Below are positions 6,811-52,234 of a stretch of 64,000 nucleotides of DNA, piece by piece (position 1 is the first letter of the stretch; every line of letters starts with the position of its first letter). Where the stretch lies: the NCBI GenBank assembly GCA_018296165.2, contig JACKQL020000039.1:372001-436000 (forward strand), read 5' to 3'. The notes beneath the pieces were generated by a model that was given only the letters and a program-made list of their open reading frames with translations, had not been told where the DNA came from and did not search any database. The position numbers were made by a program, and so were the translations under genes. This stretch comes from Termitomyces sp. T153 (lineage: Eukaryota > Basidiomycota > Agaricomycetes > Agaricales > Lyophyllaceae).

Positions 6811-8826
6811 CTAAGCATCAAGGTCAGCATTGTTGTTGGGCACTTCCACCAAATCCTCCTCCTCCCAATCCCTCTCTCCAACATTGTTCTCCTCCTGCCA
6901 GGCCAGAAAGGCCTGACAGTCACACTAATATCCTGCCAGTGTTGCTAAGGTTTGCTTGGCAACAGCATACTATGCTCTCGCCACTATCAACTCCTCTCTT
7001 GCCACCTCCAGCTCCCTCTGGAACCATTGTTCCACCCCTGCCATCCTTTTGTTAAAGTCCATTAGCAATGTTGCTGGCGTTAGTGGCATCAGCCAAGCCA
7101 GATCCTCACCCAGCCACTCCAGTTTGTCATCACCAACTTGGTGCAATGGGATGTTGCTCCAGGTCTCCTAGCAAAGTTGTTAGCAAACTAGAAGATAGCA
7201 AAAAAGAAGGACTTACTCTTTGACAGACCTTGACCTCCCCTGCTCCTTTGTCCTCCTCTTTGTCCTCCTCAATGGTGACTGGGGCAGCCTCAAACTCTTC
7301 CTCACCCTCAACCTCCATGTCGCTTGCTTCTTGCTCAACCTCAGTGACCGTTGCTAAGGGAGTTGTCTCCCTCATCTCCACATCTCCTTCACCCTCCTTG
7401 CTAGTAATCTTTCATGGTTGCTTAGCACTAGTGACCAAGGCAGGACTTGCGGGTTGTTTCTGTGCCAGAGGCATATCATCATTACTGTCATTGTCACTGC
7501 CATCATGGCCATTGCCCTCCTCATTGCTCTCCATCAGCTCCCTGCTCTTCACCTTAGTGACCCTGCTACTTCCAATCATTGCCTCCTTCTGCAATGTTGG
7601 CAGGTGCAAGCTAGAGGGCTTGACCTTGATGAGCTCCCCTCTTCTTTTCAGCTCCCTCTGTTGCTCCACAAAAGCCCTTGCATTTCTTACCAATGCTACC
7701 TTTGCCACTATCCTCTTAGCAAACTTGCTGCCTGTGCTCCTTGACAATTGTCCACTGTGCAAACAGCTCTTCCTGGTGCTGTCACAATGATAGCAGGGCT
7801 GGGCTCCATTGCAGCAACCCTCTGGGTCATTGTTGGCCCAGCAGTTGTTGCACTAGGAAGTTGTTAGTGATTATGAAGGAGACTATTGCTAAGCACTTAC
7901 TGCTCCCTGTGTGCACTTAAATTCTTATTGCTTCTCTAGTGACACTGTCACCTTCCCCTTTGCCTGCTTTAGCACCACTCCAGCCCTCAGTCCAGTATCC
8001 ACCACCATTGAGGCCTTTCACCAATAAAGAAGTGTTGCCAAGTGCTTGTCAGAAAAAGTTTCTTTAATTTGTTCCTGCAAAGAAAACTTAGCAATTGTCA
8101 CCAAGAGTTAGCAAAAATAAAAGGACTTACTTCAATGTCTTCATCATCCTCTTCTCAAGCCTTGCCCTTTCCCTTTCCCTTGCTCCTTGGAGTTGTCACC
8201 AATCTTGGTAACATTGCCAACCCCCTAGTGACACTGCCAGCCACAGCCTTGGGAGTCGAGGGGCCCTCCTGAATATCCCCACAATTTGCCTCACTCTCAG
8301 GGCCCTTGCTCTGTTCCTTCCCCCTTGCCACTGCTAATGCACCTATCAGGTGCTGGAAGAAGAACTGGTCATTTGGCAACAAATCTTTGAAAAGCTAATG
8401 TACCTTAGCAGTGTTGCTAGCACTAGTGACTGCCGGGGCACTGACTATCATTTCTGCCATCAAATTGTCCAGCAAAAACTCCAAGGAGGGATTGACTAGA
8501 GCCTAGCAAACTTGTTAGAACTGTTGCTAAGAGAAAAGAAGAAGAAAGGAACTTACAAAGTGTATGTCAAATGGGTGAACTCATTCTTCCCCTTTGTATT
8601 GTTCATATAGTTGGCAACACTCCCTCTCAATGTTTGCCAACTCCGGCCACTCAACCCCACTCCCCGTGGTCTTGAACCACTGAAGCCAGGTCTGGAAAAT
8701 GGTGGTAACCACCAAGCAAGGATCCTTTGTCAGTGATGTATGGGCCAAGAAGAGCAAACAATCAACCCAATTGAGAAAGGTGTGGGCCATCATAATTTTC
8801 TTGAGTTGAGAAGCAAGGTTGGACAT
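6811..8826 (-). pseudogene. Family 1 antisense accessory gene (six-Cys cluster), copy A
   Basis: The gene lies opposite to gag-pol, between pol and the 3' LTR. The proposed start is the ATG at 8826 (MSNLASQL), with ATAAAAG about 80 bp upstream. Four introns are visible: 8503-8556, 8075-8130, 7853-7900 and 7168-7216. Each has a GTAAGT donor and a TAG or CAG acceptor, and intron 1 has a CTAAC-type branch point. All five exons (270, 372, 174, 636 and 357 bp) are multiples of three, so every intron is phase 0; the product would be about 602 residues. Exon 4 opens with a cysteine cluster (7763-7852): CNNC, a single or double Cys, then CYHCDSTRKSC. Basic, then acidic (EEDKEEDK) regions follow, and the last exon is helical. 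About eight in-frame stops make it a pseudogene; several are sense codons in copy 2. No known function; the cluster resembles a fungal Zn2Cys6 DNA-binding domain. Confidence 0.7.
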
Positions 8827-8999: not shown

Positions 9000-10086
9000 T
9001 GATAAGACCCAGTTGTTGCTGAGCACCATTTTTGGCATTTTGGACTTAGTGGCAGCTGACTATTTGGCACAAGTCATGACATTCAGCAAGCAGGGCCTAG
9101 CCCAAGGTCTGGACTGACATAACCCTCACACAGGACCTTAGCAACCATGAGACTTATCAATCACAGGGAATATCACATGGAGTCTGGACTTTGAGTTTAG
9201 AATAGTAAGGCCAAGACCTTTCCTAATGACAATTATTAGCGACTCTAGCAACCCCTTAGCAACAAAACAGCTTTCTTTCCCCATATATGGACATATTGCC
9301 AGATGCATACTTTTTTTTACTTATCATTTCTCTTGTTGAGCTTACCAACATACTTGAATAGCATCTACACTTCAGAGACTTTGCTTATAATTTTCACTTA
9401 GTTACAGATTGATGCCTCATTTGAACCATAAACATCTTGGCAGATGCCATTGCTAGTGGGAATTATTTGCTTACTTTCCCATACTATACTTTTGAACAGT
9501 ATAAATACTGCCTGCAAATAGCCACTACAACAGAGAATTCCATTGGACAGACTCCCCTTGGATCAAACCCATCCATCTCTAAGCCTACCAGCTTGAGATT
9601 TCACTCTGCTTCTATCTTTATTCCCTCCCTCGCCATTGACAATGACTTAGCAACCAATTCTACCAACTTTGACCCTGACCTAGTGTGGTACCAGTTGCGG
9701 GTGCCCTTTGTGTTAGCTCAACTTAGCAATGTTAGCAACTGTGGCTAGTAACTGGTTTACATTCATCCCTTGTTCAGTCTCCTTATCACCATCCTTCCCT
9801 TTTCTATTCTCCTTCATAACTCCTCTACCACCATTAGAAATTTGTTTTGTCTTAGCAGCACTTTCTGTCTCCATTAATTTTTCTTCCTGTCACTAGCAAC
9901 TTAGGCTAGCAATAGTGACCATTTCAACTTTATCTTTCAACGCAGCACTTGCTCTCATTTTCTGGGACAGTTACTGACTCACCCTCAACTATTCACTTCC
10001 TACTGCCAGCTAGCCTATCTAGTGACTAGTGTTGGGTTCTCTTTTCAGGTTTCCTGCATGGCACTAGGCAGCATAGGAGCACATCA
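9000..10086 (+). repeat. Family 1 LTR shared by two tandem copies
   Basis: It begins TGATAAGACCC and ends GGAGCACATCA. A PPT-like tract and the antisense gene of copy A lie to its left. A PBS-like start and the gag of copy 2 lie to its right. It therefore serves as 3' LTR of one element and 5' LTR of the next. No 5-bp direct repeat flanks it, as expected for an internal LTR of a tandem. It is almost identical to 24880-25972 over its middle about 820 bp but clearly diverged at both ends. Confidence 0.85.
9500..9507 (+). promoter_or_regulatory. Probable TATA box of the family 1 LTR
   Basis: TATAAATA lies near the middle of the LTR and would start a sense transcript shortly downstream. In the second LTR (about 25390) the same site reads TATCAATA, one of only three differences in the long near-identical tract. 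Confidence 0.5.
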
Positions 10087-21331: not shown

Positions 21332-22097
21332 GGAGCTAGTCTGCAATATGTAACAATAAAGCCCCTTAAGGGGGCTAATCTATGTCTGTACTAGAAAAAA
21401 AAAGTCTGATATTTATATACAGGAGGCAACTGTTGCTAAGGGCCAAGGTCAGCATTGTCATCAGGCACCTCCACTAAGTTGTCCTCCTCCCAATCCTCCT
21501 CCCCAACATTGTTCTCCTCTTGCCAGGCCAGGAAGGCCTGACAGTCATGCCTATATCCCACCAGAGTTGCCAGAGTCTGTTTAGTGACAGTGAACCATGC
21601 TCTTGCCACTACCAGCTCCTTCCTTGCTGCCTTCAGCTCTCTCTGGAATCTCCTCTCCACTCCAGCCACCCACTTATCAAAGTTCAATAGCAATGCTGCT
21701 GGTGTGAGTGGCATCAGCCAGGCCAGATCCTTGCCCAACCACTCTAGCTTGTCATTGCCAACCTGGTGCAACAGTGTGTTGCTTCAGATTGCCTAGCAAT
21801 GCCATTAGTGAACAAAAAGATAGCAAATAGAGGGACTTACTCGTTGTTGGACCTTGGCCTCCTTTGCACCTTTGCCCTTCCCCTTATCCTCCTTTATGGC
21901 AACAGTCGCCACCTCAAATTGCTCCTTGCCCTTGACCTCCATGTCACTTGCCTCACACTCTACCTCAGCAACTGTCACTAAGGGAATCGTCTCCCTCATC
22001 TCCACATCCTCCTTGCCCTCCTCACTAGCAACTGATGCTGGACTTGCTAGGCATTTCTGTGCCAAAGGCACATTGTTGTTGCTGTTGTTGTCACTGC

Positions 22098-22224
<127 letters not shown>

Positions 22225-37531: not shown

Positions 37532-37770
37532 GCCCCCTAGCACCTTGGTTTGGCTCAATCAACACAACCTCAAGACCTGGAGGCCCTCCATCAAACTTGA
37601 TCACAAATGCTTCAGCCTTTTCAAAGTCCTCTGGAAGGTCTCCATGCATGCCTACAAACTCAACCTACCTCCAGGCTTGAAAGGCCTCCACCCCATATTC
37701 CACGTCCAACTCCTTGAAAAACATGCTCTGGACCCCTTCCTCAGCCAATGCCCCAGCTAACTGCCCCCTG

Positions 37771-37975
37771 TCAAAGTTGAAGTACCACTACAAGGTCAAC
37801 CAAATCCTCAACTCCTGCATAGTCCATGGCCAACCCCAGTACTTGGTCTGCTGGAAGGGCTATGGACCTGAGGACAACATGTGGGAACCCTGAAAAAACC
37901 TTGACAAAGCCCCCAATGGACTCTGGGACTTCTATTGACAACACCCCACCAAGCCCCGGGACCCCTGGGACTAGC
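37771..37975 (+). pseudogene. Element B chromodomain
   Basis: YEVNQILNS-like start ([18 protein letters not shown]), then [32 protein letters not shown]. This copy keeps the WKGYGPEDN segment that a 16-nt deletion has removed from element D. It lies directly downstream of the integrase C-terminus. Confidence 0.75.
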
Positions 37976-38199
37976 AAGTACAGATGGCATTAGTGGGCAT
38001 AACCCCTGCCTCTGGATGTATCAGGGATTCAACTCCCACAAGTACCCCCCCTACGTGTTTTCACTTACTCTGCCCCTCACTCATTCTGAAAACTACTCAT
38101 GCTCAGCAGAAATGCAAGGAGTCCAATATTGACAAGGCTACAAATACAAAATATAAAACTAGGGGAGTGTGGAGCAACAAGAAGCCAAAATCCAGAAAG

Positions 38200-39890
38200 C
38201 CCCTACTCCCCCTCCTCTGACTCTACCTCTGCTACCCTTCCCACCATGACCACTTCCAGCTGTGGCACTACTGTCGCCAGAACCTTGGGTTATCTAAGAA
38301 GCAGTTCCCCCACATCCATTGCCACTTCCCACTATGCTCTGGGGTCTGCCATCGCCCTCCACTGATGCCCCACCAGTAGATGCCCCATCTGTGTAACCCT
38401 CTGCCCCAACTCTGGCAAAAGGTCCCCGGCCATCCTTGCCAACCCATTGTGGATGGACTCCAATGCTGCTGACACTCTGTCAAGAAGGATGCAGTGCTCC
38501 CTGGACCAGTCTGTGGAAACAGGATCAGTTCATAAGAAACGGGAAACAAAGAGACCACTTATGGAGCACTTCCCACCACCCCAAGGCTGCCTTGTTGGCA
38601 AGCCACTCCTCCTGCTGCTGCACCCTCTCCGCCGCTGCCTGGGCTTCTCCAATGCTAGGCCCCTGCTGAGTTTCCCACACCTCCAACCCCTCTGACCGCT
38701 GCTCTGCCATCTCTGCTCACACCTCTAATAGTCCCATATGTGCTTGCAGCTCCTGAAGCTGCGACAATCGCTCCATGGCAGTCTCCACAGCAATGTCCTT
38801 ATCCCTCCACACTATGTCCCATTCCCTCTGAGCCCCATTTAACTCCCTCTGAAGCCTGTCCCTCTCCTCCCCCATCCTCTGAGCTTCCTTCCTGCATGTG
38901 GCCAATAACCATTCCAGCTCCTCCACCCAATGCTGCAGGAAAGCCTCAGCAGCCAACTATGACCCTCCTGCAGACTGCTTGACCAAGGCCCTGGAGATCA
39001 AAGAATACACTGTGGGGCTCAGGAGGCCTGCCATCACTTGCTCCCCCTGTGCCCACTTGCTAGGCCCCACCTCTGGCAAGGGGGACGCCCTCCATTTACC
39101 CTTACCATGTGCTGTGGGGGCCCCCTCCCTCCATCCACCCTGCAGGGGCCCAACTTTCATTGGGGGCCACCCCATGCCAACTCCCCCCTCCACCCCAGAA
39201 CCCCACCCTGACACCCTACCCCTCTGGCCCTCCTCCAACTGTGCTATGACCCACTCATGGTCCCACCTCTGCTCCACCATGATGCAAGTGGCACACCAAC
39301 TCAAAGTAACAGAACACTTCTCATGCTGCAAGCAATACAGGAGACACACTGACATGTCCTGCCACACCCCTGGCACAGGCTCCTCAAACTCACACTATTC
39401 ACCCCACCAGGTACAGGACACACACTAGGAGATGTGGGTTAGCTTGATAAGGAAGGGACATGCCAATAATGCACCAGGGCCATCACCTGGCACCACTCTA
39501 ATGTCAGGGGACCCCTTGCCTACTCCGCAGCCTCTGCAAAGTGCTCTGGCATCATGTCTGCCTGCGAGACTCTCGACCTCATAGGGATAGGGTGGACCAC
39601 TCTGGAGCCAAGGCCAGGCTGAGAATGTGAAGCAGAGACCGCTCCCACTACCAACTGCACTGGGGCCTCCCCCAATGAAAACCCCGAGGGGCCCACCACC
39701 ATTGCTAACAACTCTGCCAGGACTTAATCAGCACTCTGACCATGATGAGTAAGAGATGGCACTTACAACTACAGTACATTGCCTGGACCTGCCTATGGTC
39801 CTGCCAACTCTTAGAGTCTTCAGAGGAAGAAGTCAAGGAATGTGCTGAGGGGGATGGGGACACTGCTGGAGAGTATGTGGAAGATGACAT
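38200..39890 (-). pseudogene. Family 2 antisense accessory gene, copy B
   Basis: The ATG at 39890 gives MSSSTYSPAVSPSPSAHS, close to D, and ATTAAAAAG lies about 40 bp upstream. The cysteine-cluster exon (about 39420-39300) reads CVSCTWWGE, stop, CEFEEP and then MSVCLLYCLQHEKC. All six Cys codons persist, but Arg has become Trp and Gln a stop relative to D. The frame 39376-38957 and the coiled-coil frame 38956-38717 follow. Decay is by transitions. The gene is convergent with pol, about 200 bp from the chromodomain end. Confidence 0.7.
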
Positions 39891-40086
39891 TGGAGTTTAG
39901 GAACTCTGGGGTTTGTCTGACCCTTTTTAATGACTTGGAAGGAACCCCCTGATGAGTGGCAGCCATACTTCAACTTTGTTCCCCATGCTGCTGCTGCTAC
40001 TGTGGTCTGATCAATATTGCTCAACTTTGATTCCCATGCCCTGCCAATCCCCGAACTGTGCCCCATGTCTCAAGGGTCTCAATGCT

Positions 40087-40099
40087 GAAAGGGGGGTGA
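40087..40099 (+). other. Element B polypurine tract
   Basis: GAAAGGGGGGTGA directly precedes the 3' LTR and corresponds to GAAGGGGGGGTGA in D. It would prime plus-strand synthesis. Confidence 0.8.
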
Positions 40100-41107
40100 T
40101 GTCACAACCCACTCCCTAGACTCCTGACATCATTTCCAGTCCTCCCCAACACTCTGCCAAACTCCCCCAACTCTCATCCACCCTCTGCGCCCACTCCGAA
40201 TAACTCTGACACTTCTTCGGCAAACCCTGACAGCTCCCTGATCAACTCCAATGCCTTTTCCACAGCCGTTGACACATTCCCTGACTTCCTCTAAGCTCCT
40301 GAGACTTCCCCCACCATTCCTGACTATGTCACACTCCCCCAACCCCCCACTCTAATTCCCCCAACCTGCTCCAGAGTGCCCCGACAACTCTGGAGTGGCC
40401 CACTTTCCAGTTGATCCCATCACACCCAACACCCGTCAACTCTGCACAGCTCTGTTGAGCCCCGCTGCCATACCCTCTGTTCTCCAGAGCCACCCAGTAG
40501 TCAGTATATAAGTCATAGAGTAACTCCTGGTACTTTAGTCTTGATATTACATTTACTGGTTTCTTGTGTCTTGTGTTTTGTTTTGCCTCTGTCTCTATTT
40601 TTAGTCTCAAATCTATCTCTGTTCTCTGTCTTGTCTTGCCTCATCTCCATCTCATCTCAACTGTATATATTTCCTTTGTTTCTCCAAGTTCCTTTCATCT
40701 CCAACATCAGTACAAACTCCACACACATGCTACAACCCCCAAACATTCTTATAACAACTCCGGACCTCACCCCCTGCTTGGCTCCAAAATCCACCAAGTC
40801 TTGATGATCCCCCATCAAACTCTGGCCCCACCCCCATCATTTGCAAAGCCTCCACTTATCCCACAGTCTATTTGCATGCCTACAAACTTGTTCCTGATGC
40901 CTGCCCAGGTTTGACATCTAATATACTTGGTCTTAGACTTCTCCAGACTACTCCAGACTTGCTCAGACTGCTCCTCCTTGCTTCCCTTCACAAGTCCCTT
41001 CACTCCACACCAACTCCAGGATGCTAGGTTATAAGCACAGGACATTGTGTCTGCCTAGTAAGGATCTGCCAGTGTTGCTGAGCTCCCATCATCAGCGGAA
41101 CCTGACA
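40100..41107 (+). repeat. Element B 3' LTR
   Basis: TGTCACAACCC to GAACCTGACA, followed by the GGTGC duplication. It has TATATAAG near 40505 and AGTCTTGATATTA about 32 nt downstream, the self-primer source. Confidence 0.9.
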
Positions 41108-41275
41108 GGTGCCACACATCCTGCAGCTCCAAGTATCTGTCAAGAGCTTCCAGGTTCTTGCAGGTAGTGAGGGACTTCCAAGTGGTGTCCCCCGAACTCC
41201 AATGAACCTTAAATTTGAGGTTCTTACCATCCCAATGGTGACCTACTAGATCATTGACAAACTATTCCTGGTCAT
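41108..41275 (-). pseudogene. Element E chromodomain fragment
   Basis: Read on the minus strand: FVNDLVGHHWDGKNLKF, KVHWSSGDTTWKSLTTCKN, LEALDRYLELQDV. This is a chromodomain-like C-terminus of a Ty3 integrase of a type widespread in Agaricomycetes. It lies between the insertions of B and D and continues into 52235-52552 on one side and 26293-26572 on the other. A TAG in DDQE-stop-FV shows decay. Confidence 0.8.
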
Positions 41276-42273
41276 TGTCAGGTTCCGCTGACGACGGGGG
41301 CTCAGTACACTGGCGAGTCCTTACTAGGCGGACGCGATGTCCTGCGTTTATAACCAGGCGCCCAGAGTTGGAGCGGAGGTGGGGAAAGCTTGCGAGGGGT
41401 CCCTAGGGATAGCAGCCCGAGTAAGTCCTGAGTGATTCGGAGGGGTCTAAGACCGGAGGTACTGGTCGTTGACCCAGGGCGGGTGTCAGGGCTAGTTAGT
41501 GGGCGCACAAGTAGATTGCAGGGTAGGCGGAGGCTTCTCGGCTGTTGGGGGGCGGAGTTGGGTCGGACAGGGGATTACCAGGGCTTGGTGGGTTCCGGGG
41601 CTGAGCGGGTAGCGAGGTCCGGAGTTGTCGTTAGGAATGTTCAGGTTGTGGCGCGTGCGCGGAGTTCGTACTGACATAGGGAGCAAGGGAACTTCAGAGG
41701 AACAAAGGAAATATGTACAGTCGAGACAAGACAGAGACGAGACGAGACTGAGAAAAGATAGATTCAAAACCTAGAAACAGAAATAGAGACGAGATGAGAG
41801 ACGAAACATAGGAAACCGGTAAAATGTAATATCAAGACTAAAGTTCGAGGAGTTATTCTATGACTTATATACCGACTACTGGGTGCCTCCGAGGCGGCGG
41901 ATATGATGGCGGGGGTCGACGGAGCTGTACTGAGTCGACGGGTGTCAGGTACAACCCAAGGTCGGGCCGCGGCTGTATTCTGATGGGATCAGTTGGGGGC
42001 GCGGCCGCTCCGGGGACGTCGTGACACTCTGGGACGGGTCGGGTAAACTAGGGTAGGGGGTCGGGGACGTATGACGTGGCCAGGAACGGTGGGGGAAGGT
42101 TTCAAGGGGGTGTTGATGGCTACGGAGAGGGAGTTGCTGTCGGGGTTTGCCGGAGGAGCGTCGGAGTTGTCCAGTGTGGGCGTTGAAAGTGTGGGCGGGG
42201 TCCTGAGGAGTTAAGCGGGAAATCGGGAGGGGTTGGGAGCAGTGTCTAGGGAGCTAGGGAGCGGGTTGTGACA
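41276..42273 (-). repeat. Element D 3' LTR
   Basis: TGTCAGGTTCC to GTTGTGACA on the plus strand. In element orientation TATATAA (41865-41871 on plus) lies about 32 nt before AGTCTTGATATTA (41827-41839). Confidence 0.95.
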
Positions 42274-42487: not shown

Positions 42488-44183
42488 ATGTCTTCTTCAG
42501 CTTATTCTCCCACAGCATCTAGGTCACCGTCCCCGCCTTCCCAGCCGTCGTCCTCCGAAGATTTGGAGGGTCGCCGAGATCGCCGTTGGGTCGAGGTGAT
42601 GTACCGTAGTCATGAGTGCCGCCCGTTCCATGTACCCCAGGATGCTGATCGTCCCTTTGCAGAGTTGTCCGCGGCCGTAGCTGGTCCCTCAGGGCCACCA
42701 TCCAGTGCGGATGCGATGCAGCCCCCGGCAGGCGTGGTCACTTCTACGCATTCCAAGTCTGGCATTCGCCCGGGGGTGGTCTGGCTTGTCCCAGAGGGTT
42801 TGAGGGTGGTCCAGGCGGAGGTGACGCCGGAGCAGTTTGCCGAGGCGGTGGGTCGGGCGAGGGGTCCCCCCACCCTTGAGTGGTGTCAGGCGGCGGCTCC
42901 GGTGAGTGGTCACTTAGCTTCATGTCTCCTGGACTAACATGCCCCTGCAGTGTGCGTCTTGTACCCGACGAGGGGAGCAGTGTGAGTTTGAGGAACCGGC
43001 GTCGGGGGTACGGCGGGACACGTCGGTGTGCCTTCCATGCCATTCGCGGCACAAGAAGTGCTCCGTCACCCTGAGCTGGCGGGCCGTTTGCGTCGCGGTG
43101 GAGCAAGGGTGGGACCAGGATTGGGTCGCAGCGCAGCTGGAGGAAGGACAGAAGGGCAGGGTGTCGGGGAGGGGCTCTGGGGCTGGGGAAGGGGAACGGG
43201 TCAGCGCGCCTGTCATGAAGGTGGGCCCTCCGCAGGGTGGACGGAAGGAGGGGGCCCCTTCCAGGCAGGAGAAAGGGAAACAGAGGGCGTCCCCTTCACC
43301 CGAGGCGGGTCCCAGTAAGCGGGCGCGGGGTGAGCAGGTGATGGGGGGCCCCCCTGGTTCCGCGGTGTATTCCCCTACGTCCGGAGCCCCCGTTGAGCAG
43401 TCCGCGGACAGGTCGTGGTCGGTTGCGGAGGCCTATCTGCGGTGTCGGGTAGAGGGCTTGGAACGGTTGTTGGTTGTACGCGAGGAGGAGATTCAGGGGG
43501 TACGGGAGGAGAGGGACGGGGCTCGACGGGAGTTGGACGGGGTTCGGAGGGAGCGGGACCTGGCGCGGAAAGACAAGGACGTCGCCGTCGGGACTGCCGC
43601 GGAGCGATTATCTCGTCTGCAGGAGTTGGAGGTGCGGACAGTGCATTTGCAGGCGTGGGTGGAGGCGGCAGAGGTGGCAACGCAGCAGGCAGGAGGCTCA
43701 GGGGTGCGGGAGACTCAGCAGGGTTCCAGCGCTGGGGAAGTCCGGGCAGCGGCGGAGAGGACACGGCGGCGGGAGGAGTGGCTCGCTAACAAGGCGGCCT
43801 CGGGCCAGCAAGGAGTGCTTCGTGAGTGGTCTTCCTGCTTTCTTCTCCTAAGCACTGATTCGGGTTCCACAGACTGGGCCCGGGAGCATTGCATCCTTCT
43901 CGAAGGAGCGTCGGCAGCGCTGGGGTCCATCCATGATGGGTTGGCGAGGATGCCCAGGGACCTTCTGCCGGAGTTGGGTCAAGGGGTTACGCAGATGGGG
44001 CGCCTGTTGGCAGGGCATCGGCGGAGGGCGACGGCAGACCCCAGGGCGTGGTGGGAGATAGCGACGGACATGGGGGAACCGCTCCCCGGGCAACCCGAGG
44101 TCCTGGCGGCGGTAGTGGCACAGTTGGAGGTGTTCATGGTGGGAAGGGTAGCGGGGTTGGGGTTGGAGGAGGAGGGAGAGTGA
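42488..44183 (+). CDS. Antisense accessory protein with Zn2Cys6-like cluster and coiled coil
   Basis: Best copy of the family-2 antisense gene, on the strand opposite gag-pol. Exons are 42488-42901, 42951-43821 and 43873-44183. Introns (49 and 51 bp) run GTGAGT...CTAAC...CAG and GTGAGT...CAG. The spliced product has 531 residues and no internal stop. Residues 1-138 are Ser/Pro-rich then mixed; exon 2 opens with C-x2-C-x6-C-x15-C-x2-C-x6-C (CASCTRRGEQC and CLPCHSRHKKC), the order of a fungal Zn2Cys6 cluster but with a longer middle loop. Then come SWRAVCVAVEQGWDQDW, a basic KRARGEQ segment, a heptad-rich coiled coil (about residues 285-375, EERDGARRELDGVRRERD) and a helical last exon. Intron 2 is a multiple of three and open, so unspliced RNA would also be read. 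A DNA-binding, dimerising nuclear protein is plausible but inferred. It could regulate the element or chromatin around it. Confidence 0.75.
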
Positions 44184-44616: not shown

Positions 44617-45855
44617 TCAGCTGGGGCGTTGGCCGGGGAAGGGGTCTGGAGCGTGCCTTTCAAGGAGTCGAACGTGGAACACAGGGTGGAGGCCCTTCAG
44701 ACCCGGAGGCAGGTCGAGCTTGTAAGTGTGGGTGGAGACCTTCCGGAGGATCTTGAATGGGCCGAAGCGTTTGTGGTCAAGTTTGATAGAAGGCCTCCAG
44801 GTCTTAAGATTTCGTTGGTCGAGCCAGACCAAGGTGCCGGGGGGCCAGTCGGGGGTCAGCTGGCGACGGGCGTCGGCGTGCTTGGAGTAGGCTTGGTTGG
44901 CGGTGTCGATCTCGTCCCGGAGGAATTGGTGGAGGGATTGGAGGTCCTTGGCGACTTCGTGGGCCACGTGGGAGGGGATGTCCTTGAGGGACAGCGTGAG
45001 TCGGGGGTTGTAGCCCTTGTTGGCGTAAAAGGGGGAAACTCTGGTGGCGGAGTGAGGCGTGTTGTTGTAGGTGAATTCGGCGAGGGGGAGCTCCGCACGC
45101 CAGTCATTCTGTAAATAGTTAACGTAGAGGCAAAGATACTGTTCTAACGTCTGGTTTACGCGCTTGGTTTGCCCGTCGGTTTCCGGGTGGTAGGCGGTGG
45201 AGAGGTTGGTTTTGATCTCAAGTGCCTTGCACAGCAATTGCCAGAAATGAGATACGAATAGGGGTCCACGGTCGGAGACGATGTCGTTGGGAAGTCCGTG
45301 TTTGGAGAATACGTGTTCTAGAAATAGTTTAGCAAAATCCGGGGCGGTGTCAGTGGTGTGGCAGGGAATAAAGAGGGCTTGCTTGGTAAGGTGGCAGACG
45401 ATGACGAGAATTGCGTCGAAACCTTCGGAGTCAGGGAGTTCGACGATATGGTCCATCGATATTGAGGACCAGGGGCGGCAACCGACGGGGAGGGGTTTCA
45501 GTAATCCGTGGGGGCGATGGCGGGGGACTTTGGCCCGTAGGCAGGGTTCGCAGGCCCTCACGTATCGCGTGACATCCTTCTTCATTCCTGGCCAAAAATA
45601 AGTCCGGGAGATGAGTTGAAGGGTCTTACGAATTCCCGGGTGCCCCCAGAGTTTGTGATCGTGGTGCTGCCGGAGTATGTCGAGGCGAATGGACTTGTGG
45701 TCCGGGGCGTAAATTCGTCCACTTCAGCGCAGCAGGCGGTGGTCCGGGGATAGCGAAAAGGGGTTGTCTACGCTCGACTCGTCGGGGTTGTTGCGGGGGT
45801 CGTGCTGGTTGAAGAAGGGGTCCAGGGGTGTGCTTCTGATTTTGGTGGAGGATTT
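44617..45855 (-). pseudogene. Element D integrase, catalytic Glu lost
   Basis: The frame begins MKKKSSTKIRSTPLDPFF at about 45860, +1 relative to RNase H, with a TGA near 45725, then is open 45585-44617. Zinc motif ACEPCLRAK. Core: MDHIVELPDSEGF (D), VSDRGPLFVSHFW (D) and GQTKRVNQTLEQYL. In the last motif the catalytic Glu (GAA, retained in element B) is Lys (AAA). This single G-to-A change alone should abolish integration. C-terminal LVWLDQRNLKTWRPSIKLD is intact. Confidence 0.88.
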
Positions 45856-47782
45856 CTTCTTCATTTAGAATCAGCATGGCATGTAGATGTTTGGGGGGGA
45901 TTACCACTTGCTGGTTGAATGCATTCCATTTGGCTTCAAATGACTTTTTTGGATACATGTCAGACCTTTGAGTGAGGGTGTTGGGTTTTGCGCTGAGTCG
46001 CCCGGGGCGGTAGTGAATGGTAAAATTGTACTCCAAAAGGGTTTTGGACCATCGAGCCTGGCGGCGGCTGAGCTGTTTCGTGGTCATGAAATATTGCAGG
46101 TTATTGTGGTTGGAGTAGACTTGGATGCGGTGCGGGGACCCTTCGAGGTAGGCCCGCCACTGACGAAAGGCTTTGACGATCGCGAGGAGTTCCTTGTTGT
46201 AAATGTCGTAGTTGAGTTCCGCCGGGATCATTGATCGGGTGTAGAAGGCGACGGGGCGGAGATCCTTGCCCTCTGAGTTCGACTGGGAGAGTATCCCGGC
46301 GATAGCGTAGTTGGAGGCATCACATTCGAGCACGATCGGTAGGGAGGGGTCGAAATGGCGGAGGACCAGAGCGGAGGTGAAGGCCTTCTTCAGGAGGAGG
46401 AATACGCTCTGGCACTTGCTGTCCCAATCCCAAGGGGTGTCTTTCCTTGTGAGCCAGTTGAGGGGTTTAGTGATTCCGGAGTAGTTGTCGATGAAGCGGC
46501 GATAGAAGTTAGCAAACCCCAAGAATGACTGTACCTCCTTGACGTTCCACGGGGAGGGCCAGTTGAGTATCGTGTTGACCTTGGTGGGGTCCATGCGCAC
46601 ACTGTCGGGGGTGACGATGACCCCGAGATATTCGACTTCCGCTGTGTGGAATGAGCACTTTTCGGGTTTAGCATGAAGGTGATACTCTCGGAGTCGTTCC
46701 AGGACATGGCGGACGTGCTCCGAATGCTCCGCCGGCGAATTTGAGTAGATCAGGATATCGTCCAAATATACAATGACAAAGACGTCATTCATGTCGTGAA
46801 AGATGTTGTTCATGAAGTACTGGAAGGTGGTGGGGGAGTTAGTCATTCCGAAGGGCATTACGAGATACTCAAAGAGGCCGTAGCGGGTGCGAAAGGCGGT
46901 CTTCCATTCATGCCCCGGGGCGATCCGGACGTTGTTGTAGCCGGAACGAAGGTCGATTTTCATGTAAATCTTGGCGCTGCGAAGGTGATCAACAAGGTCT
47001 CCAATTAAGGGGAGGGGGTACCGGTTCTTCTTGGTGACTTTGTTGAGTCCCCGATAATCCACACAGAGTCGGAGGGATCCGTCTTTTTTCTTGGCGAACA
47101 GAACCGGAGCACCAGCCGCGGAGATCGAGGGACGTATGAAACCTTTGCCAAGCATCTCGTCGAGGTACTCCTTCAGGGCCCAGAGCTCAATTTCGGACAT
47201 GTTGTAGATCTTGCCAAACGGGGGTGAGGTGCCTTCTTCGAGGTCAATCTGGTGGTTGTAGGAGCGGTGCGGAGGGAGTTCCTTGGCACTTCCTTCGGAG
47301 AACACGTCAGCGAACTTATGATACTCCGGGGGAACTACTTCGGATAGGATCTGTTCCTCTGTCTTCTTTTCTGGCGTGGTAGTCCCTGCGCGGAGGTATT
47401 CCTCCGGTAGGGCCAGCGTGACTTGCAACTGGAAGGCGGGGGTGCCTTCTCGTAGGAGGCGCGCGAAGGGGACGGCGCCGATGATTTTAATGTCGAGGTT
47501 TCCGGGGTCGACAGGGCCGGGTCCCGTAGGTGTAGCAGTCGGATCCGGGGTGGCGTCAGGGTCCGGGATAGGCTGGAAGCGGAGGTGGATGGCAGCTGCT
47601 AAGCTTGCTTCAGGGCCGGGGAATTGCATGGTAAGGTTCTTCCAGTTGATGTCGGGGTTGATGTCTCGCAGCCACGGGAGTCTGAGCACAATCGGGGTCG
47701 ACGGGGGTAGTTGGGTAACGAGGAGTCGGGCCTGGAACTGCAGGTCGTTATCGAGGGTGAGGGTGTTGTCGTGGTACTGCAT
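45626..47782 (-). CDS. Element D reverse transcriptase-RNase H (718-codon open frame)
   Basis: The longest sense frame in the window; it starts inside the second protease domain. RT follows EQILSEVVPPEYHKFADVFS with [73 protein letters not shown] and VIVYLDDILIYSN, so the catalytic Asp pair is intact. RNase H has LECDASNYAIAGILSQ (D) and YNKELLAIVKAFRQW (E), but IQVYSNHNNLQYF shows Asn where element B has Asp, a G-to-A change at a catalytic position. The last about 70 codons are out of the integrase frame. It is part of one pol polyprotein, not an independent gene. Confidence 0.85.
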   Translation of the reverse strand: MQYHDNTLTLDNDLQFQARLLVTQLPPSTPIVLRLPWLRDINPDINWKNLTMQFPGPEASLAAAIHLRFQPIPDPDATPDPTATPTGPGPVDPGNLDIKIIGAVPFARLLREGTPAFQLQVTLALPEEYLRAGTTTPEKKTEEQILSEVVPPEYHKFADVFSEGSAKELPPHRSYNHQIDLEEGTSPPFGKIYNMSEIELWALKEYLDEMLGKGFIRPSISAAGAPVLFAKKKDGSLRLCVDYRGLNKVTKKNRYPLPLIGDLVDHLRSAKIYMKIDLRSGYNNVRIAPGHEWKTAFRTRYGLFEYLVMPFGMTNSPTTFQYFMNNIFHDMNDVFVIVYLDDILIYSNSPAEHSEHVRHVLERLREYHLHAKPEKCSFHTAEVEYLGVIVTPDSVRMDPTKVNTILNWPSPWNVKEVQSFLGFANFYRRFIDNYSGITKPLNWLTRKDTPWDWDSKCQSVFLLLKKAFTSALVLRHFDPSLPIVLECDASNYAIAGILSQSNSEGKDLRPVAFYTRSMIPAELNYDIYNKELLAIVKAFRQWRAYLEGSPHRIQVYSNHNNLQYFMTTKQLSRRQARWSKTLLEYNFTIHYRPGRLSAKPNTLTQRSDMYPKKSFEAKWNAFNQQVVIPPKHLHAMLILNEEEILHQNQKHTPGPLLQPARPPQQPRRVERRQPLFAIPGPPPAALKWTNLRPGPQVHSPRHTPAAPRSQTLGAPGNS

Positions 47783-48610
47783 GATTCTTGTTGTGGCAGG
47801 GCTCCCATCAAAGAGTTGGAGCTCGAGGGGTTTGTCGAGGTCGTTGCGTCAGAGGTCGAGTTGGTTGCTGACGAAGACACCGGAGGCGCCGCTGTCTACG
47901 AGGGCGGGAAGTACCTTGAGCGAGCCGCCAAGTCGGACATAGATGACAAACAATCGCGCAGACCTAGAGTGAAGTTGCGGCGGGGTCCGGGGTGGGCTGA
48001 TCGTGGTCTCGGAGCTCTCGGAGGGGGGTGAGACATGGAAGGGCACCAGTCCGGAGTCGGTGGGGTTGTCCCGGTCGAGGCGTAGGGTGAGACTGGGCCA
48101 ATCGATGTGGGGATTGGTGGAGCAGAGCCATGAGAACCCTAAGACGACGGGGGCAGAGGGGTGTAATTTTGTGACGAGTAATCGGAGTTCTTGCTGTTGT
48201 CCGTTGGCGAAGGTCAGGGTCGTTTCTAGGCAATGAGTGATGTCTCCCGCTGGGGTAGAGTCTCTGTCAAAGAGTTTGAGGGGGATCGGGGTGGGAAGAC
48301 AGCGGAGGGGTTGTGGGGCGAGCGCTGCCAGGGATTCGTCAATAAAGTTATCGGTGGCACCGCTGTTGACTAGTGTGGGGACGGGTTTGTCGGTGAAGGG
48401 AAGAGTGGTGCGGAGGAGGAGGTTTGTGGAGGATTGAGAGGGGAGGTGTGCTGGGGGGTTGTCCGGGGCGAGCATCATTGCGTGGAGGAGTGTGGCTGGG
48501 GCAGAGAAGACGTCGGGATGTGGTCCGCGGTCTAGTGCGTCTTCCAGACCTAAACCGCCGACTTGTTTTCCGTGAACTGGTAGTTGCAGTCTTCTCCGTC
48601 GATCGTCCAC
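47640..48610 (-). pseudogene. Element D twin retropepsin domains
   Basis: The pol frame, -1 relative to gag, carries two consecutive protease-like units. The first has LVNSGATDNFIDESLAAL (48330-48380, catalytic Asp now Asn) and VVLGFSWLCSTNPHIDW (48110-48160). The second has LPALVDSGASGVFVSNQLDL (47860-47920, Asp intact) and IVLRLPWLRDINPDINW (47650-47700). Each unit keeps the D-S-G-A/T start and the hydrophobic-LG-x-x-WL end of a complete retropepsin half-dimer. A TGA at 47849 (CAA in element B, so probably ancestral CGA) separates the two frames. Confidence 0.8.
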
Positions 48611-51204
48611 ACGGCGCGTCCCATCACCTGTTGTTTAGGGCAACTGCGAATAAAATGTCCCTGCTCACCACATAGGATGCATGCGCCCTCCTTCCGTCAT
48701 CTCTCCTGCGTTTCTTCTGGCACGTCGATCCACTGACTGTCCTGGATCCTGTTTGCGCATAGGGCCTCCTGATCGTCGGCAGGGTCCGGGATGTTGTCGC
48801 GATCGTCGGGGTTGGTATCCAGGGGTACTGGGGTGTCGTGGAGGTCGGCGGCGTTGAGCTGGGCGGGTGGTCGTTGCCCCGGGGGCCGGTTAGTGTTGGG
48901 GACTCCGTGGCCCGGGGGAAAGCGGGGTGCGGGGTTAGCAGGGTTGGCGGGGATGGTGGATCGGATGCCATTGGTCGCTCCGGCCTGCCAGTTGGTGTTA
49001 CCGGAGGTATTCCACGAGGTCCGGGGCGCCGTATTTTCACTGCGATCTTCCCAATAACGTTGGTCGACCTGGGTAACGAGCGCCTTGTACCCGGGGATGG
49101 TGGATCGGATGCCATTGGTCGCTCCGGCCTGCCAGTTGGTGTTACCGGAGGTATTCCACGAGGTCCGGGGCGCCGTATTTTCACTGCGATCTTCCCAATA
49201 ACGTTGGTCGACCTGGGTAACGAGCGCCTTGTACCCGTCGTAGGTGGTTTGTTTGGGCGCGAGGCGAAGGACATCCTTGATCCGTTGGGGCAGGGCACAA
49301 TGGAGGGCGAACCGGAGAGCGTTGTAATTCCAGCCGGTCTCGTAGGCCTCTTGTTCGAATCGTACGATGAAGGTTGTGAAGCGTTTGTTGTCGCGCATTT
49401 GGAGGTTGAAGAGATTTTCCTCCGCCTCTGCTACGGTGTCAAAGACGCCAAACTTACTCGAGAACTCTTGAGTGAAAGCGAGCCAATGGGAGAGTACGGG
49501 ATTGTTGGGGTCGAACCAGAGTAGCGCGGTGTAGTGGTCAAAGGCAATGCCCTGTAAGTATGATGCGGCGAAGGCTACTCGTGAGCTCTCAAGCTGTAAA
49601 GTGATGGGCTTAGCTTGAAACATAGTTAAACACTGGGTCAGGAAGATTCGCCACTTCCGGGGGTCGCGGCCGGTGAAGGGTTCGGGCTTCTGGATGTCGA
49701 GCTTTCCTTCCCGGGCCAGTGCGTCGCGGGTATCGTCCTGCGAGTTTTGAGTTCAAGGTGGGGGTCCGGCGTTGTAGTAGTAGTAGTAGTTGTTTCCGTT
49801 TCCGCGCTGGGGGGGAAAGTTGTCCATCGCCGGGCCCCATCCTCCCGGGGGTCCGCCATTGGGTGGTCCCCCACCGGGGTTTTGACCTACACTACCCGGG
49901 GCGGGTCCTGGGGCCCATCGAGGGGGAGAGGGTCCTCCGGGATTTGGGGGTCCGAAATAGTTGATGTCGTTGGGGGGGGTTAGGCATCGGGCGGGCGGGG
50001 GACGAGAGGGGTTGATGGAAAGAGGAGGTCGGGGCACCCCGGGGCCCAGGGGCTGTCACGGGGGGACTGGGGCGTTGGGATGGGGCGGAGGGGCATTGCT
50101 ACGAGGGGCGCGGAGGTCGAAGTGGGGGGGTCGGTCTCGTTGGGGCCCATTGCGCGGGGGGTGTTCGTCGGCGGGGTTGCCCAGCTCGTCGATATAGGAG
50201 AGGGTCCGGTTGTCGTTGTCGACGCGTAGGGGCGGTCATTGGGAGCGGATTTTGGGGATGGCGGGTTGATCCCAGGTTCGGAAGGCGCTGGGCACCGAGC
50301 TGGCCCGGGGCCAGGCGGAGAGGGCCAGGGTGTGGGCGGTGGGTTGGTCGAACAACCCCCCCGTGGGGTTGAGATTCCTCAAGATGCTGGAGGCCACGTT
50401 GAGTTCTTCGTGCTGGCGGGGAACAGAAGATGGGGCTTCGTTTTGTGTCCCGACGGGTTCCTTGCGTTGCACGTGGAAGGAGCGGGTGGGATCCAGGGGA
50501 TCTTCGAAGGGGCGGGGGTTCGGGCTAGTGTGGATTTCTTCAACCAAGGCGCGGAGCTCGTTCTGTAAGTTCTCGTCAAGGCCCAGGGTGCCTTGCGTAT
50601 TCTCCGGGAGGTTCCCTTGCAGGTAGCGTTTGTGGAAGTCGAGGAGTCGGTCCGCCCAGACCTCCGGGGTTGCGGAGGTGTCGGGGTAGCCTAGGCTGGT
50701 AAGGAGGGTGCGGGTACGCCTTGCGAATTCCGCAGGGGACAGGCGGAGGAAGCGGAGGACTTCGTCGCGTTGCTGGGCGTAGGCTTTGATCCTTTGCTGC
50801 CTAGGAGAAGGAGGGGTTTGAACGGCGAATGGTGGGCGGGGTGGGGAATAGTTATCTGTGGCTTCCGGAGGGACTGGGGCTGCAGTGGGGATTGGATACG
50901 CATAGTAATGGGTGGGGAAAAGGTAGGCGGGGTTGGAGGGTGCTGTGGAGTATCCTCCGGGGTTGATACGGGGGTTGTTGCCATCGGCGTGGAATGCGGG
51001 AGGGCGGCGCCAGCCCGGGGGTATTCCCTGGCTGATGGAGGGGGCGTAGAACACCTGGTTGGGGTCAGGGGTCCAGTGACGGGGCACGTATTGGTCCGCG
51101 AAGGGGCCCGGGTAGAATGGGGTGTAGGAATTTTCCAATATGGGCCGGCCGTAGGCGTCGGTTGGGTAACCGACTGGGTTGTATGCGGGATTAAACACAG
51201 ACAT
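48550..51204 (-). pseudogene. Element D gag, with TGA codons
   Basis: The ATG at 51204 (MSVFNPAYNPVGY) is 20 nt after the PBS. All pieces (to 50236, 50037-49753, 49623-48697) are in one frame, separated only by TGA codons near 50236, 50047, 49753 and 48697. Two of these that can be compared are CAA in element B, consistent with ancestral CGA. The N-terminal about 320 residues are Pro/Tyr-rich. A Gly/Pro/Asn linker with a Tyr run follows, then a capsid core (EPFTGRDPRKWRIFLTQCL) with an exact 48-residue repeat. The zinc knuckle CILCGEQGHFIRSC lies at about 48660-48685. Gag ends in TAG at 48550-48552. G-GAA-AAC (48565-48571) is where B has a slippery A-AAA-AAT. Confidence 0.85.
48951..49238 (-). 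repeat. Exact 144-bp in-frame tandem duplication in element D gag
   Basis: The units 48951-49094 and 49095-49238 are identical by eye and encode 48 residues (GYKALVTQVDQRYWEDRSEN onward) twice. Element B has a single copy of the segment (about 29600-29745). The absence of differences means it formed after most of the decay in this region. Confidence 0.92.
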
Positions 51205-51223
51205 CAAGAACGGGGTAAGGAGG

Positions 51224-51236: not shown

Positions 51237-52234
51237 TGTCAGGTTCCGCTGACGACGGGGGCTCAGTACACTGGTGAGTCCTTACTAGGCGGACGCGATG
51301 TCCTGCATTTATAACCAGGCGCCCGGAGTTGGAGCGGAGGTGGGGAAAGCTTGCGAGGGGTCCCTAGGGATAGCAGCCCGAGTAAGTCCTGAGTGATTCG
51401 GAGGGGTCTAAGACCGGAGGTACTGGTCGTTGACCCAGGGCGGGTGTCAGGGCTAGTTAGTGGGCGCACAAGTAGATTGCAGGGTAGGCGGAGGCTTCTC
51501 AGCTGTTGGGGGGCGGAGTTGGGTCGGACAGGGGATTACCGGGACTTGGTGGGTTCCGGGGCCGAGCGGGTAGCGAGGTCCGGAGTTGTCGTTAGGAATG
51601 TTCAGGTTGTGGCGCGTGCGCGGAGTTCGTACTGACGTAGGGAGCAAGGGAACTTCAGAGGAACAAAGGAAATATGTACAGTCGAGACGAGACAGAGACG
51701 AGACGAGACTGAGAAAAGATAGATTTGAAACCTAGAAACAGAAATAGAGACGAGACGAGAGACAAAACATAGGAAACCGGTAAAATGTAATATCAAGACT
51801 AAAGTTCGAGGAGTTATTCTATGACTTATATACCGACTACTAGGTGCCTCCGAGGCGGCGGATATGATGGCGGGGGTTGACGGAGCTGTACTGAGTTGAC
51901 GGGTGTCAGGTACAACCCAAGGTCGGGCCGCGGCTGTATTCTGATGGGATCAGTTGGGGGCGCGGCCGCTCCGGGGACGTCGTGACACTCCGGGACGGGT
52001 CGGGTAAACTAGGGTAGGGGGTCGGGGACGTATGACGTGGCCAGGAACGGTGGGGGAAGGTTTCAAGGGGGTGTTGATGGCTACGGAGAGGGAGTTGCTG
52101 TCAGGGTTTGCCGGAGGAGCGTTGGAGTTGTCCAGTGTGGGCGTCAAAAGTGTGGGTGGGGTCCCGGGGAGTTAAGCGGGAAATCGGGAGGGGTTGGGAG
52201 CAGTGTCTAGGGAGCTAGGGAGCGGGTCGTGACA
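51237..52234 (-). repeat. Element D 5' LTR
   Basis: 998 bp, same length as the partner with no indel seen. It ends at the GTCAT duplication. It contains the sense promoter TATATAA and the presumed transcript start AGTCTTGATATTA. Confidence 0.95.

What the first reader, a model, noticed from the sequence alone, without database searches (positions are those of the whole stretch)
6811..8826. A second, distinct Ty3 family carries the same kind of antisense gene, with an intron at the same place
Family 1 has an antisense gene at the same position (convergent with pol, before the 3' LTR). Its six-cysteine cluster ends CYHCDSTRKSC, against CLPCHSRHKKC in family 2. In both families a phase-0 intron ends directly before the first cysteine codon (7853-7900 and 42902-42950). 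Families 1 and 2 differ in LTRs, PBS type and pol. Shared position, motif and intron point to one ancestral antisense module, either old or exchanged between families. This looks like an undescribed accessory system of basidiomycete Ty3 elements.
Basis: partly seen in the sequence, partly recalled or inferred. Interest (0 to 1): 0.9.

Follow-up and report, generated by a model that had tools for sequence, protein, structure and literature searches.

The report
Antisense zinc-cluster genes in retrotransposons
Two very different families of jumping DNA in what looks like a termite-farmed mushroom each carry a spliced, selected backward gene for a probable DNA-binding protein, and one family is also peppered with a short DNA word that could be its own address label.

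Summary
Family 1 (6811-8826, minus) and family 2 (42488-44183, plus) each carry a spliced gene between pol and 3' LTR, antisense to pol, with a six-cysteine cluster and a phase-0 intron ending exactly before the first cysteine codon. The window's family 1 copy is decayed, but across sampled copies both genes are under purifying selection (dN/dS 0.19-0.33 and 0.23-0.42). All homologues found are Termitomyces hypothetical proteins. One ancestral module is plausible but unproven: profile comparison is not significant (P about 0.1), while the exact intron coincidence favours it. New here: (1) the family 2 cluster reads as a Gal4-type Zn2Cys6 cluster with its halves in swapped order (swapped in silico 32 bits; ten shuffles at most 13.6); family 1 fails this test. 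(2) A young family 1 element holds 121 TCGC[T/C]A sites in 10.4 kb, five- to tenfold over expectation, on both strands; counting decayed forms, 35 of 35 family 1 loci and 0 of 30 family 2 loci exceed threefold. Best reading: a nuclear, probably dimeric DNA-binding accessory protein acting on its own element; the protein-motif link is inferred. Antisense accessory genes are a known kind; this is a new variant.

The parts
8557..8826 (-). Family 1 antisense gene, exon 1 (start codon at 8826; decayed copy with a stop inside)
   Evidence: reading; exon limits by alignment to the less decayed copy L069
8446..8502 (-). Family 1 antisense exon 2 (boundary with exon 3 least certain: public model P0104 splices it differently)
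8131..8394 (-). Family 1 antisense exon 3
7901..8074 (-). Family 1 antisense exon 4
7853..7900 (-). Phase-0 intron ending directly before the first cysteine codon
   Evidence: GTAAGT...CTAG; slot kept in copies
7217..7852 (-). Family 1 antisense exon 5, starts with the six-cysteine cluster (cluster 7763-7852)
6811..7167 (-). Family 1 antisense exon 6 (C-terminal long helix, coiled coil inferred), stop at 6811-6813
   Evidence: helix 493-556 in the AF2 model of P0104
2420..2965 (+). Remnant of family 1 reverse transcriptase (decayed)
   Evidence: query, which finds 150 scored places in the genome (cap)
9000..10086 (+). 3' LTR of the family 1 copy (start by the polypurine tract and one search matches; end approximate)
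   Evidence: full LTR 1129 bp in the copy on contig C5
22462..22557 (-). Six-cysteine cluster of a second family 1 antisense gene in the window (copy about 21361-23468)
42488..42901 (+). Family 2 antisense gene, exon 1
   Evidence: third-position excess p 0.027
42902..42950 (+). Phase-0 intron directly before the first cysteine codon
   Evidence: GTGAGT...TGCAG; 30 of 30 copies keep GT and AG
42951..43821 (+). Family 2 antisense exon 2, starts with the six-cysteine cluster (42951-43061)
   Evidence: 102 copies scored, many without stops; dN/dS 0.31
43822..43872 (+). Probable second intron, phase 1, 51 nt and open in frame
   Evidence: diversity 0.107 against 0.053 and 0.039 in the exons beside it, no third-position excess; GT 28 of 30, AG 30 of 30
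43873..44183 (+). Family 2 antisense exon 3
41276..42273 (-). Family 2 3' LTR; antisense start codon lies 215 bp from its inner edge; target duplication GTCAT at 41271-41275 and 52235-52239
51237..52234 (-). Family 2 5' LTR, 97.5% identical to the 3' LTR
44620..45723 (-). Family 2 integrase part (Integrase_H2C2, rve, SH3_Tf2-1)
45629..47848 (-). Family 2 reverse transcriptase and RNase H
48700..49752 (-). Family 2 gag
37532..41107 (-). Part of a second, 69%-identical family 2-like copy with the antisense cysteine exon starting at 39424 and an intron in the same place

Best explanation
Each family carries, antisense between pol and the 3' LTR, a multi-exon gene for an accessory protein built like a small fungal transcription factor: a six-cysteine, probably zinc-binding cluster (in family 2 a Gal4-type Zn2Cys6 with its two halves in swapped order), charged stretches, and a long C-terminal helix, probably a coiled coil for pairing. 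The gene is probably read from a promoter in or next to the 3' LTR (start codon 173-215 bp from it) and spliced by the host; the antisense gene keeps its introns because the sense genomic RNA is what is reverse transcribed. The protein most likely enters the nucleus and binds its own element's DNA, adjusting its transcription or protecting it from silencing. In family 1 the likely address is the word TCGC[T/C]A repeated about 120 times along the element. Shown here: gene structure, selection, cluster order in family 2 (by sequence), motif excess and conservation. Inferred: transcription, nuclear entry, zinc and DNA binding, pairing, the link between protein and motif, effect on silencing.
For: Third-codon-position excess in 6 of 6 family 1 exons and 3 of 3 family 2 exons (p 0.0002-0.027) and in 0 of 7 introns; dN/dS 0.19-0.33 in the 5 family 1 exons tested of 6 and 0.23-0.42 in 3 family 2 exons; shifted-frame controls, run on one exon each, 0.75-0.77 (family 1 exon 5) and 1.03-1.18 (family 2 exon 2). 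Cysteine codons kept in 206 of 210 cells over 35 family 1 copies and 180 of 180 over 30 family 2 copies. Half-swapped family 2 cluster matches PF00172 at 32.1 bits in one stretch, profile 2-35; scored alone, the first half matches 18-36 and the second 2-15; a member 44% identical to P0002 rises from 17.0 to 25.4 bits; ten cysteine-fixed shuffles reach at most 13.6 swapped and 14.0 natural; yeast PUT3 aligns across both halves of the swapped form and crosswise to the natural form. Confident long helices in both models. Motif: TCGCYA 67 against 7.8 expected in L076 and 50 against 4.5 in L069, 0 of 200 shuffles each; family 2 copy L024 4 against 3.3; 35 of 35 family 1 loci at 3.2-5.5 times expectation, 30 of 30 family 2 loci at 0.86-1.61, decayed forms counted; sites kept 37 of 48 between two copies against 46% of 201 same-composition CG hexamers, p 1.7e-4; both strands alike, 63 and 58.
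Against: No transcript, localisation or binding data exist here. Family 1 has no Pfam zinc-cluster match in its own or swapped order; the one weak swapped match (P0169, 10.1 bits) pairs its second half with the second, that is the wrong, half of the profile. The full-length family 2 proteins score below the Pfam cut-off (11.1-12.8 against 21), while the cut-out cluster in natural order does reach 22.8 bits as two stretches, so swapping improves a match rather than creating it. Against solved structures the swapped form does not score better than the natural one (PUT3 E 0.15-0.23 against 0.14-0.19). A hand-altered basic half still scored 27.6 bits. The AF2 models are not confident at the cluster (pLDDT blocks 36-42 in family 2, 28-33 in family 1). 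A cruder count of variable sites is not significant for family 2 exon 1 (p 0.087) or family 1 exon 1 (p 0.37, nearly every site varies), and family 1 intron 1 keeps its GT donor in only 24 of 35 copies. Against a second-order background the motif excess is smaller (TCGCTA 77 against 11.6, TCGCCA 44 against 10.7). Family 2, whose cluster is the better zinc cluster, shows no comparable motif: CGGAG is about twofold in excess and mostly on one strand, and no CGG/CCG dyad stands out. All 35 family 1 loci were chosen by their antisense gene, so relatives without the gene were not examined; nothing ties the motif to this protein rather than to a host factor.
Confidence: 0.55

Rival explanations
1. 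The two antisense genes are unrelated: each family captured its own host gene in reverse orientation, and the cysteine clusters and intron place agree by chance or convergence.
For: hhalign P 0.12 and 0.087, only the cysteine clusters align; BLASTP best E 1.2; cluster spacings differ (C-x2-C-x8-C-x8-C-x2-C-x6-C against C-x2-C-x6-C-x15-C-x2-C-x6-C); family 1 has 5 introns, family 2 has 2; only family 2 matches the zinc-cluster profile.
Against: Exact coincidence of a phase-0 intron with the first cysteine codon, about 0.3-0.6% by a uniform model; same location; in both the first half has an aromatic after its third cysteine (directly or one residue on) and the second half basic residues before its last one; both have a long helix on the C-terminal side.
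Confidence: 0.38
2. The protein is a nucleocapsid- or integrase-side accessory (RNA binding, nuclear import or target-site tether) rather than a regulator of transcription or silencing.
For: Cysteine clusters also serve in nucleocapsids (established knowledge); no chromodomain was found in the seven pol and gag pieces searched from the two families, so a separate targeting protein would make sense.
Against: Family 2 cluster resembles a DNA-binding Zn2Cys6; TCGCYA in family 1 lies equally on both strands, which points to DNA recognition, not RNA.
Confidence: 0.2
3. The TCGCYA excess is unconnected with the antisense gene: a host factor, or the element's replication or chromatin biology, selects it.
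For: No experiment links them; family 2 has the gene type without such a motif; the loci were chosen by the gene, so the link is not tested.
Against: The motif is in excess in all 35 family 1 loci and densest in the antisense gene's introns (10 sites in 259 nt); it stops at the element edge, though 0 sites in 645 flanking bases is weak evidence (0.3 expected by chance, about 7 at the element's density).
Confidence: 0.4
4. The antisense transcript, not a protein, is what matters (double-stranded RNA with the genomic RNA), and the open frames are incidental.
For: Antisense transcripts of LTR elements could act this way (PMC7264820, passages).
Against: dN/dS well below 1 in the coding frame, third-position excess in exons only, cysteines kept.
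Confidence: 0.04

Closest known systems
Boty-like Ty3 elements of Botrytis with antisense gene brtn (Zhao et al. 2011, itself not seen; cited in passages of PMC7264820, PMC8365987, PMC4227169)
   Same: Fungal Ty3-type element with an extra gene antisense between pol and 3' LTR
   Different: Ascomycete; Boty gag-pol carries a chromodomain (PMC4227169 passage), none was found in the pieces searched here; sequence relation to brtn not tested
Plant aORF-3R genes (maize Grande gene23, rice RIRE2, Retand, PvRetro13)
   Same: Antisense gene between pol and 3' LTR kept in most copies; the Grande protein is nuclear and read from its own promoter (PMC7264820)
   Different: That review reports no clear similarity of those proteins to others, except an SMC domain in PvRetro13; here a zinc-cluster-like domain and several introns
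HTLV antisense promoter in the 3' LTR (passage of PMC7264820; its HBZ gene is recalled)
   Same: Antisense gene starting next to the 3' LTR; spliced and nuclear regulatory product (recalled)
   Different: bZIP, not a zinc cluster (recalled); no homology tested
VANC anti-silencing proteins of Arabidopsis VANDAL elements (PMC5735166 passages; PMC10398659 abstract)
   Same: Element-encoded protein plus a short motif at high density in its own element
   Different: VANC21 motifs lie mainly in noncoding tandem repeats in one orientation; here dispersed, both strands, coding and noncoding, in an LTR element; binding not shown
Gal4-type Zn2Cys6 zinc cluster (PF00172; PUT3)
   Same: Family 2 halves match the two halves of the profile; long helix on the C-terminal side
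   Different: Halves in opposite order, linker of 15 residues; family 1 half 1 has C-x8-C and does not match

Membership tests
Antisense accessory gene of LTR elements (aORF-3R) | Antisense, between pol and 3' LTR | tested here: met
Antisense accessory gene of LTR elements (aORF-3R) | Kept in most copies, conserved like other element proteins | tested here: inconclusive
   102 scored family 2 and 150 scored family 1 copies (lower bounds) and dN/dS below 1; the fraction of all elements having it, and the constraint on pol, were not measured
Antisense accessory gene of LTR elements (aORF-3R) | Own promoter, antisense transcript | not testable with these tools
   no expression data held
Antisense accessory gene of LTR elements (aORF-3R) | Sequence homology to brtn or gene23 | not tested
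Zn2Cys6 zinc cluster (PF00172) | Whole-protein score over the curated cut-off (21 bits) | tested here: not met
   family 2 proteins 11.1-12.8 bits, family 1 none; the cut-out natural-order family 2 cluster gives 22.8 bits as two stretches
Zn2Cys6 zinc cluster (PF00172) | Order of halves: basic half first, then the other half | tested here: not met
   order is reversed in family 2; 32.1 bits in one stretch only after swapping, controls
Zn2Cys6 zinc cluster (PF00172) | Six cysteines, kept | tested here: met
   206 of 210 and 180 of 180 codon cells
Zn2Cys6 zinc cluster (PF00172) | Two zinc ions, DNA binding | not testable with these tools
   no structure; AF2 not confident there
VANC-like sequence-specific anti-silencing system | Short motif at high density in the element | tested here: met
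   family 1 only; family 2 not met; uniqueness in the whole genome not tested
VANC-like sequence-specific anti-silencing system | Protein binds the motif and removes methylation | not testable with these tools
   needs experiment
VANC-like sequence-specific anti-silencing system | Homology to VANC proteins | not tested
   no Pfam match was seen in P0104; no direct comparison made

The most novel reading that the evidence does not exclude
Family 1 is a self-addressing LTR retrotransposon: its antisense-encoded cysteine-cluster protein recognises TCGC[T/C]A, scattered about 120 times on both strands through coding and noncoding parts, and so keeps its own copies (and not host genes) free of CpG methylation or otherwise active. 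It would be a VANC-like anti-silencing system invented independently in a fungal retroelement, with a permuted zinc cluster as the DNA reader in the sister system of family 2.
Probability: 0.25. Interest if true: 0.93.

Novelty: new variant of a known kind. Interest (0 to 1): 0.76.

Why it matters
Antisense accessory genes of LTR elements are known in plants and one fungal element group without a function (PMC7264820). Here selection on the protein, a recognisable though rearranged DNA-binding domain in one family, and in the other a dense, conserved DNA word offer a directly testable protein-and-site pair. If they belong together, it would be a sequence-specific self-recognition or anti-silencing system in a fungal retrotransposon. 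A half-swapped Zn2Cys6 cluster would also be of interest for the evolution of a very large class of fungal transcription factors.

Tried and rejected
Chance open frame: rejected by codon-position and dN/dS tests. RNA-only function: disfavoured by the same tests. Fold comparison: Foldseek of the family 1 model against the PDB gave 155 matches at E up to 10, best E 0.42; the family 2 model was not searched because its confident part is a long helix. Relatives outside Termitomyces: none among the hits of three protein searches; the method needs shared 5-residue words, and two searches scored only the top 7994 and 7987 candidates, so absence elsewhere is not shown. A motif for family 2: tested by k-mers and spaced dyads, nothing comparable. 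Hand-made controls were poor (one with an altered basic half still scored 27.6 bits, a rotated form 29.2, a hand-varied form 32.0, two with changed spacing had no zinc-cluster match); replaced by the ten scripted shuffles. One search counted family 2 exon 3 from a wrong frame start; redone. Gene-tree congruence was not attempted: two families whose antisense proteins cannot be aligned give no test. Exon 2/3 boundary of family 1 stays uncertain (P0104 splices differently). Literature: ten searches answered; others found no paper (54: 'circularly permuted' with 'Zn2Cys6'); of the listed papers I opened seven, in passages, one section (PMC7264820 section 5) or abstract and outline, none in full.
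Full report
SETTING. The window is part of a 72.4 Mb, 307-contig unnamed assembly. The protein matches all carry Termitomyces names, one at 100% identity over 70% of the query (P0110, Termitomyces sp. J132), so the host is inferred to be a Termitomyces, the mushroom farmed by termites.

OBSERVATION. Family 1: minus strand 8826 to 6811; alignment with a less decayed copy (L069, 75% identical) gives six exons and five introns, the fourth at exactly 7853-7900. All six exon lengths of the intact-framed copy are multiples of three, so in this model all five introns are phase 0. Family 2: plus strand 42488-44183, intron 42902-42950, second probable intron 43822-43872. A six-frame scan of the window found, besides readings of one poly-cysteine microsatellite, three six-cysteine clusters, all in antisense genes; twenty simulated windows gave none.

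COPIES AND PLACE. Genome searches scored 102 copies of the family 2 cysteine exon (67-100% identity, many without stops) and 150 of family 1, the cap of the tool. 85 of 102 and 90 of 150 have their own family's RT on the opposite strand at the expected side within 8 kb; 0 and 5 show another arrangement; the remaining 17 and 55 had no RT in the lists, which were capped at 150 of 3215 and 1237 candidates. With the other family's RT the expected pairing occurs 0 times, other nearby arrangements 6 (family 1) and 1 (family 2) times. Family 2 in the window has LTRs TGTCA...TGACA, 97.5% identical, with target duplication GTCAT; its antisense start codon lies 215 bp from the 3' LTR. A young family 1 copy on contig C5 has an LTR of 1129 bp, identical over the 175 bp compared between the two ends, start codon 173 bp from the 3' LTR, a gag-pro frame of 962 aa and a pol frame of at least 1248 aa in the stretch read. 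The RTs of the two families are 23% identical.

SELECTION. In 35 family 1 and 30 family 2 loci, third codon positions are the most diverse in every exon (permutation p 0.0002 to 0.027) and in none of seven introns is there a significant excess (lowest p 0.15). A cruder count of variable sites gave p 0.006 and 0.012 for family 2 exons 2 and 3 but 0.087 for exon 1, and 0.37 for family 1 exon 1, where nearly every site varies (which then stopped on an error). Median pairwise dN/dS is 0.19-0.33 in the five family 1 exons tested (exon 2 left out as too short) and 0.23-0.42 in three family 2 exons; shifted frames, run on one exon of each family, give 0.75-0.77 and 1.03-1.18. Cysteine codons are kept in 206 of 210 and 180 of 180 cells. 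Splice sites: family 2 30 of 30 at intron 1, 28 (GT) and 30 (AG) of 30 at intron 2; family 1 introns 2-5 31-34 GT and 30-33 AG of 35, intron 1 only 24 GT but 33 AG. Pairwise values share ancestry, and CpG decay inflates synonymous change, so these are indications of constraint, not rates.

ONE MODULE OR TWO. Profile comparison aligns only cluster to cluster, in register, at P 0.12 and 0.087 with larger alignments; BLASTP finds nothing meaningful. The exact intron coincidence would occur in about 0.3-0.6% under a uniform model that takes the cluster alignment as given. Public Termitomyces gene models place the same junction directly before the first cysteine in 13 of the 18 aligned family 1 proteins; the other five lack or replace that cysteine or splice otherwise. 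In both families the first half has an aromatic soon after its third cysteine and the second half basic residues before its last cysteine. I put common ancestry at about 60%.

CLUSTER. Pfam gives the family 2 cysteine exon only 12.8 bits for the Gal4-type zinc cluster PF00172, cut-off 21. The match pairs its second cysteine half with the first half of the profile. Scored alone, the first half matches profile 18-36 (16.7 bits) and the second 2-15 (16.1 bits); with halves exchanged in silico the cluster scores 32.1 bits in one stretch, profile 2-35; the cut-out in natural order scores 22.8 bits as two stretches, the better being the second half on 2-14. A second member, P0092, 44% identical to P0002, goes from 17.0 to 25.4. 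Ten shuffles with cysteines fixed gave at most 13.6 (swapped) and 14.0 (natural), 0 of 20 over the cut-off; a hand-altered basic half still gave 27.6. Yeast PUT3 aligns over both halves of the swapped form and crosswise with the natural form, but the chain E-values are weak and no better for the swapped form (0.15-0.23 against 0.14-0.19). So the family 2 cluster reads as a half-swapped, in effect circularly permuted, Zn2Cys6. Family 1 does not pass: no match in its own or swapped order, and the P0169 fragment, swapped, gave 10.1 bits against the wrong half. AF2 models are confident only in long helices (family 2 273-368, best at 281-330; family 1 493-556) and a helical N-terminal part of family 1, not at the clusters; that the helices are coiled coils is inferred.

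MOTIF. The young family 1 copy holds 121 TCGC[T/C]A sites in 10.36 kb, 63 on one strand and 58 on the other; TCGCTA 77 against 6.7 expected, TCGCCA 44 against 5.6 (first-order background), or 11.6 and 10.7 (second-order). Most single-base variants of TCGCTA are near expectation; CCGCTA, GCGCTA, TCGCTT and TCGCTG show partial excess. Independent shuffles: 67 against 7.8 and 50 against 4.5, 0 of 200 each; family 2 copy L024 4 against 3.3. Density is about 39 per kb in the antisense introns (10 in 259 nt), 13 in its exons, 12 in gag, 10 in pol, 10 in the LTR, 0 in the 180 nt before the start codon and 0 in 645 flanking bases, where 0.3 is expected by chance; the longest gap, 842 bp, spans the conserved RT core. 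In older copies CpG decay has turned the sites into TTGCYA/TCACYA; counting these, 35 of 35 family 1 loci show 3.2-5.5 times expectation and 30 of 30 family 2 loci 0.86-1.61. Between two copies 86% identical, 37 of 48 sites are kept, against 46% of 201 other CG hexamers of the same composition (p 1.7e-4). This is the pattern expected of a DNA-binding site under selection. Family 2 has no comparable word. All these family 1 loci were found through their antisense gene, so gene-less relatives remain to be checked.

MECHANISM. Zinc cluster, linker and coiled coil are the layout of Gal4-type dimeric regulators (established knowledge). With the gene starting beside the 3' LTR, the simplest reading is a nuclear protein that binds its own element. 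The nearest functional precedent for the motif is VANC of Arabidopsis VANDAL elements: VANC21 binds YAGTATTAY, found at high density in its own element, and removes methylation (PMC5735166, passages). Family 1 loci range from CpG observed/expected 1.17 down to 0.01, consistent with strong CpG methylation or a RIP-like process in old copies and with a reason to escape it. The link from protein to motif is inferred.

KNOWN OR NEW. [quoted passage not shown] In the listings (titles, abstract starts) and the passages opened I saw no description of such genes in Termitomyces or other basidiomycete Ty3 elements; one 2010 legend mentions an additional ORF of unknown function in an element not visible to me (PMC2864245), and the library lacks most subscription papers. 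Hence: new variant of a known kind.

Noticed in passing
L076 1-6500, L069 1-3501, L077 1-355 (G000:C5:253500-263855): Element-wide excess of TCGC[T/C]A (121 sites in 10.4 kb), densest in antisense introns; treated in the report as a possible self-address.
   Followed up: partly
Family 1 loci L039-L073: CpG observed/expected ranges from 1.17 to 0.01, while family 2 loci stay at 0.82-1.05: strong CpG decay of older insertions, pointing to methylation or a RIP-like process.
   Followed up: partly
window 22074-22223: Trinucleotide microsatellite inside the second family 1 antisense copy that reads as poly-cysteine on the plus strand.
   Followed up: no
window 5083-5841: LTR-like stretch about 70% similar, in inverted orientation, to the family 1 LTR and lying within the family 1 pol remnant; also about 88% similar to 56815-57582.
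   Followed up: no
window 33762-34911 and 61197-62345: A third LTR-like repeat of about 1150 bp (92% identical pair), also near 23472-24626; the first lies in what looks like an insertion splitting the second family 2-like copy.
   Followed up: no
L076 pol frame: Family 1 RT has the motif FIDDVGAKGP and no Pfam RVT_1 match at E 0.01 although RNase H and integrase zinc domains match: a diverged Ty3 type; the window copy reads FIND there.
   Followed up: partly
G000 contigs C5, C26 (two), C50, C67, C106, C139: Seven family 1 copies share the same RT score and an open pol frame of 1285 aa, suggesting very recent spread.
   Followed up: no
L076 after the LTR; window 51190-51236: Family 1 has a TGG-type primer site a few bases after the LTR; family 2 has no TGG there (TAATATCAAG...), so its priming may be unusual.
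   Followed up: no
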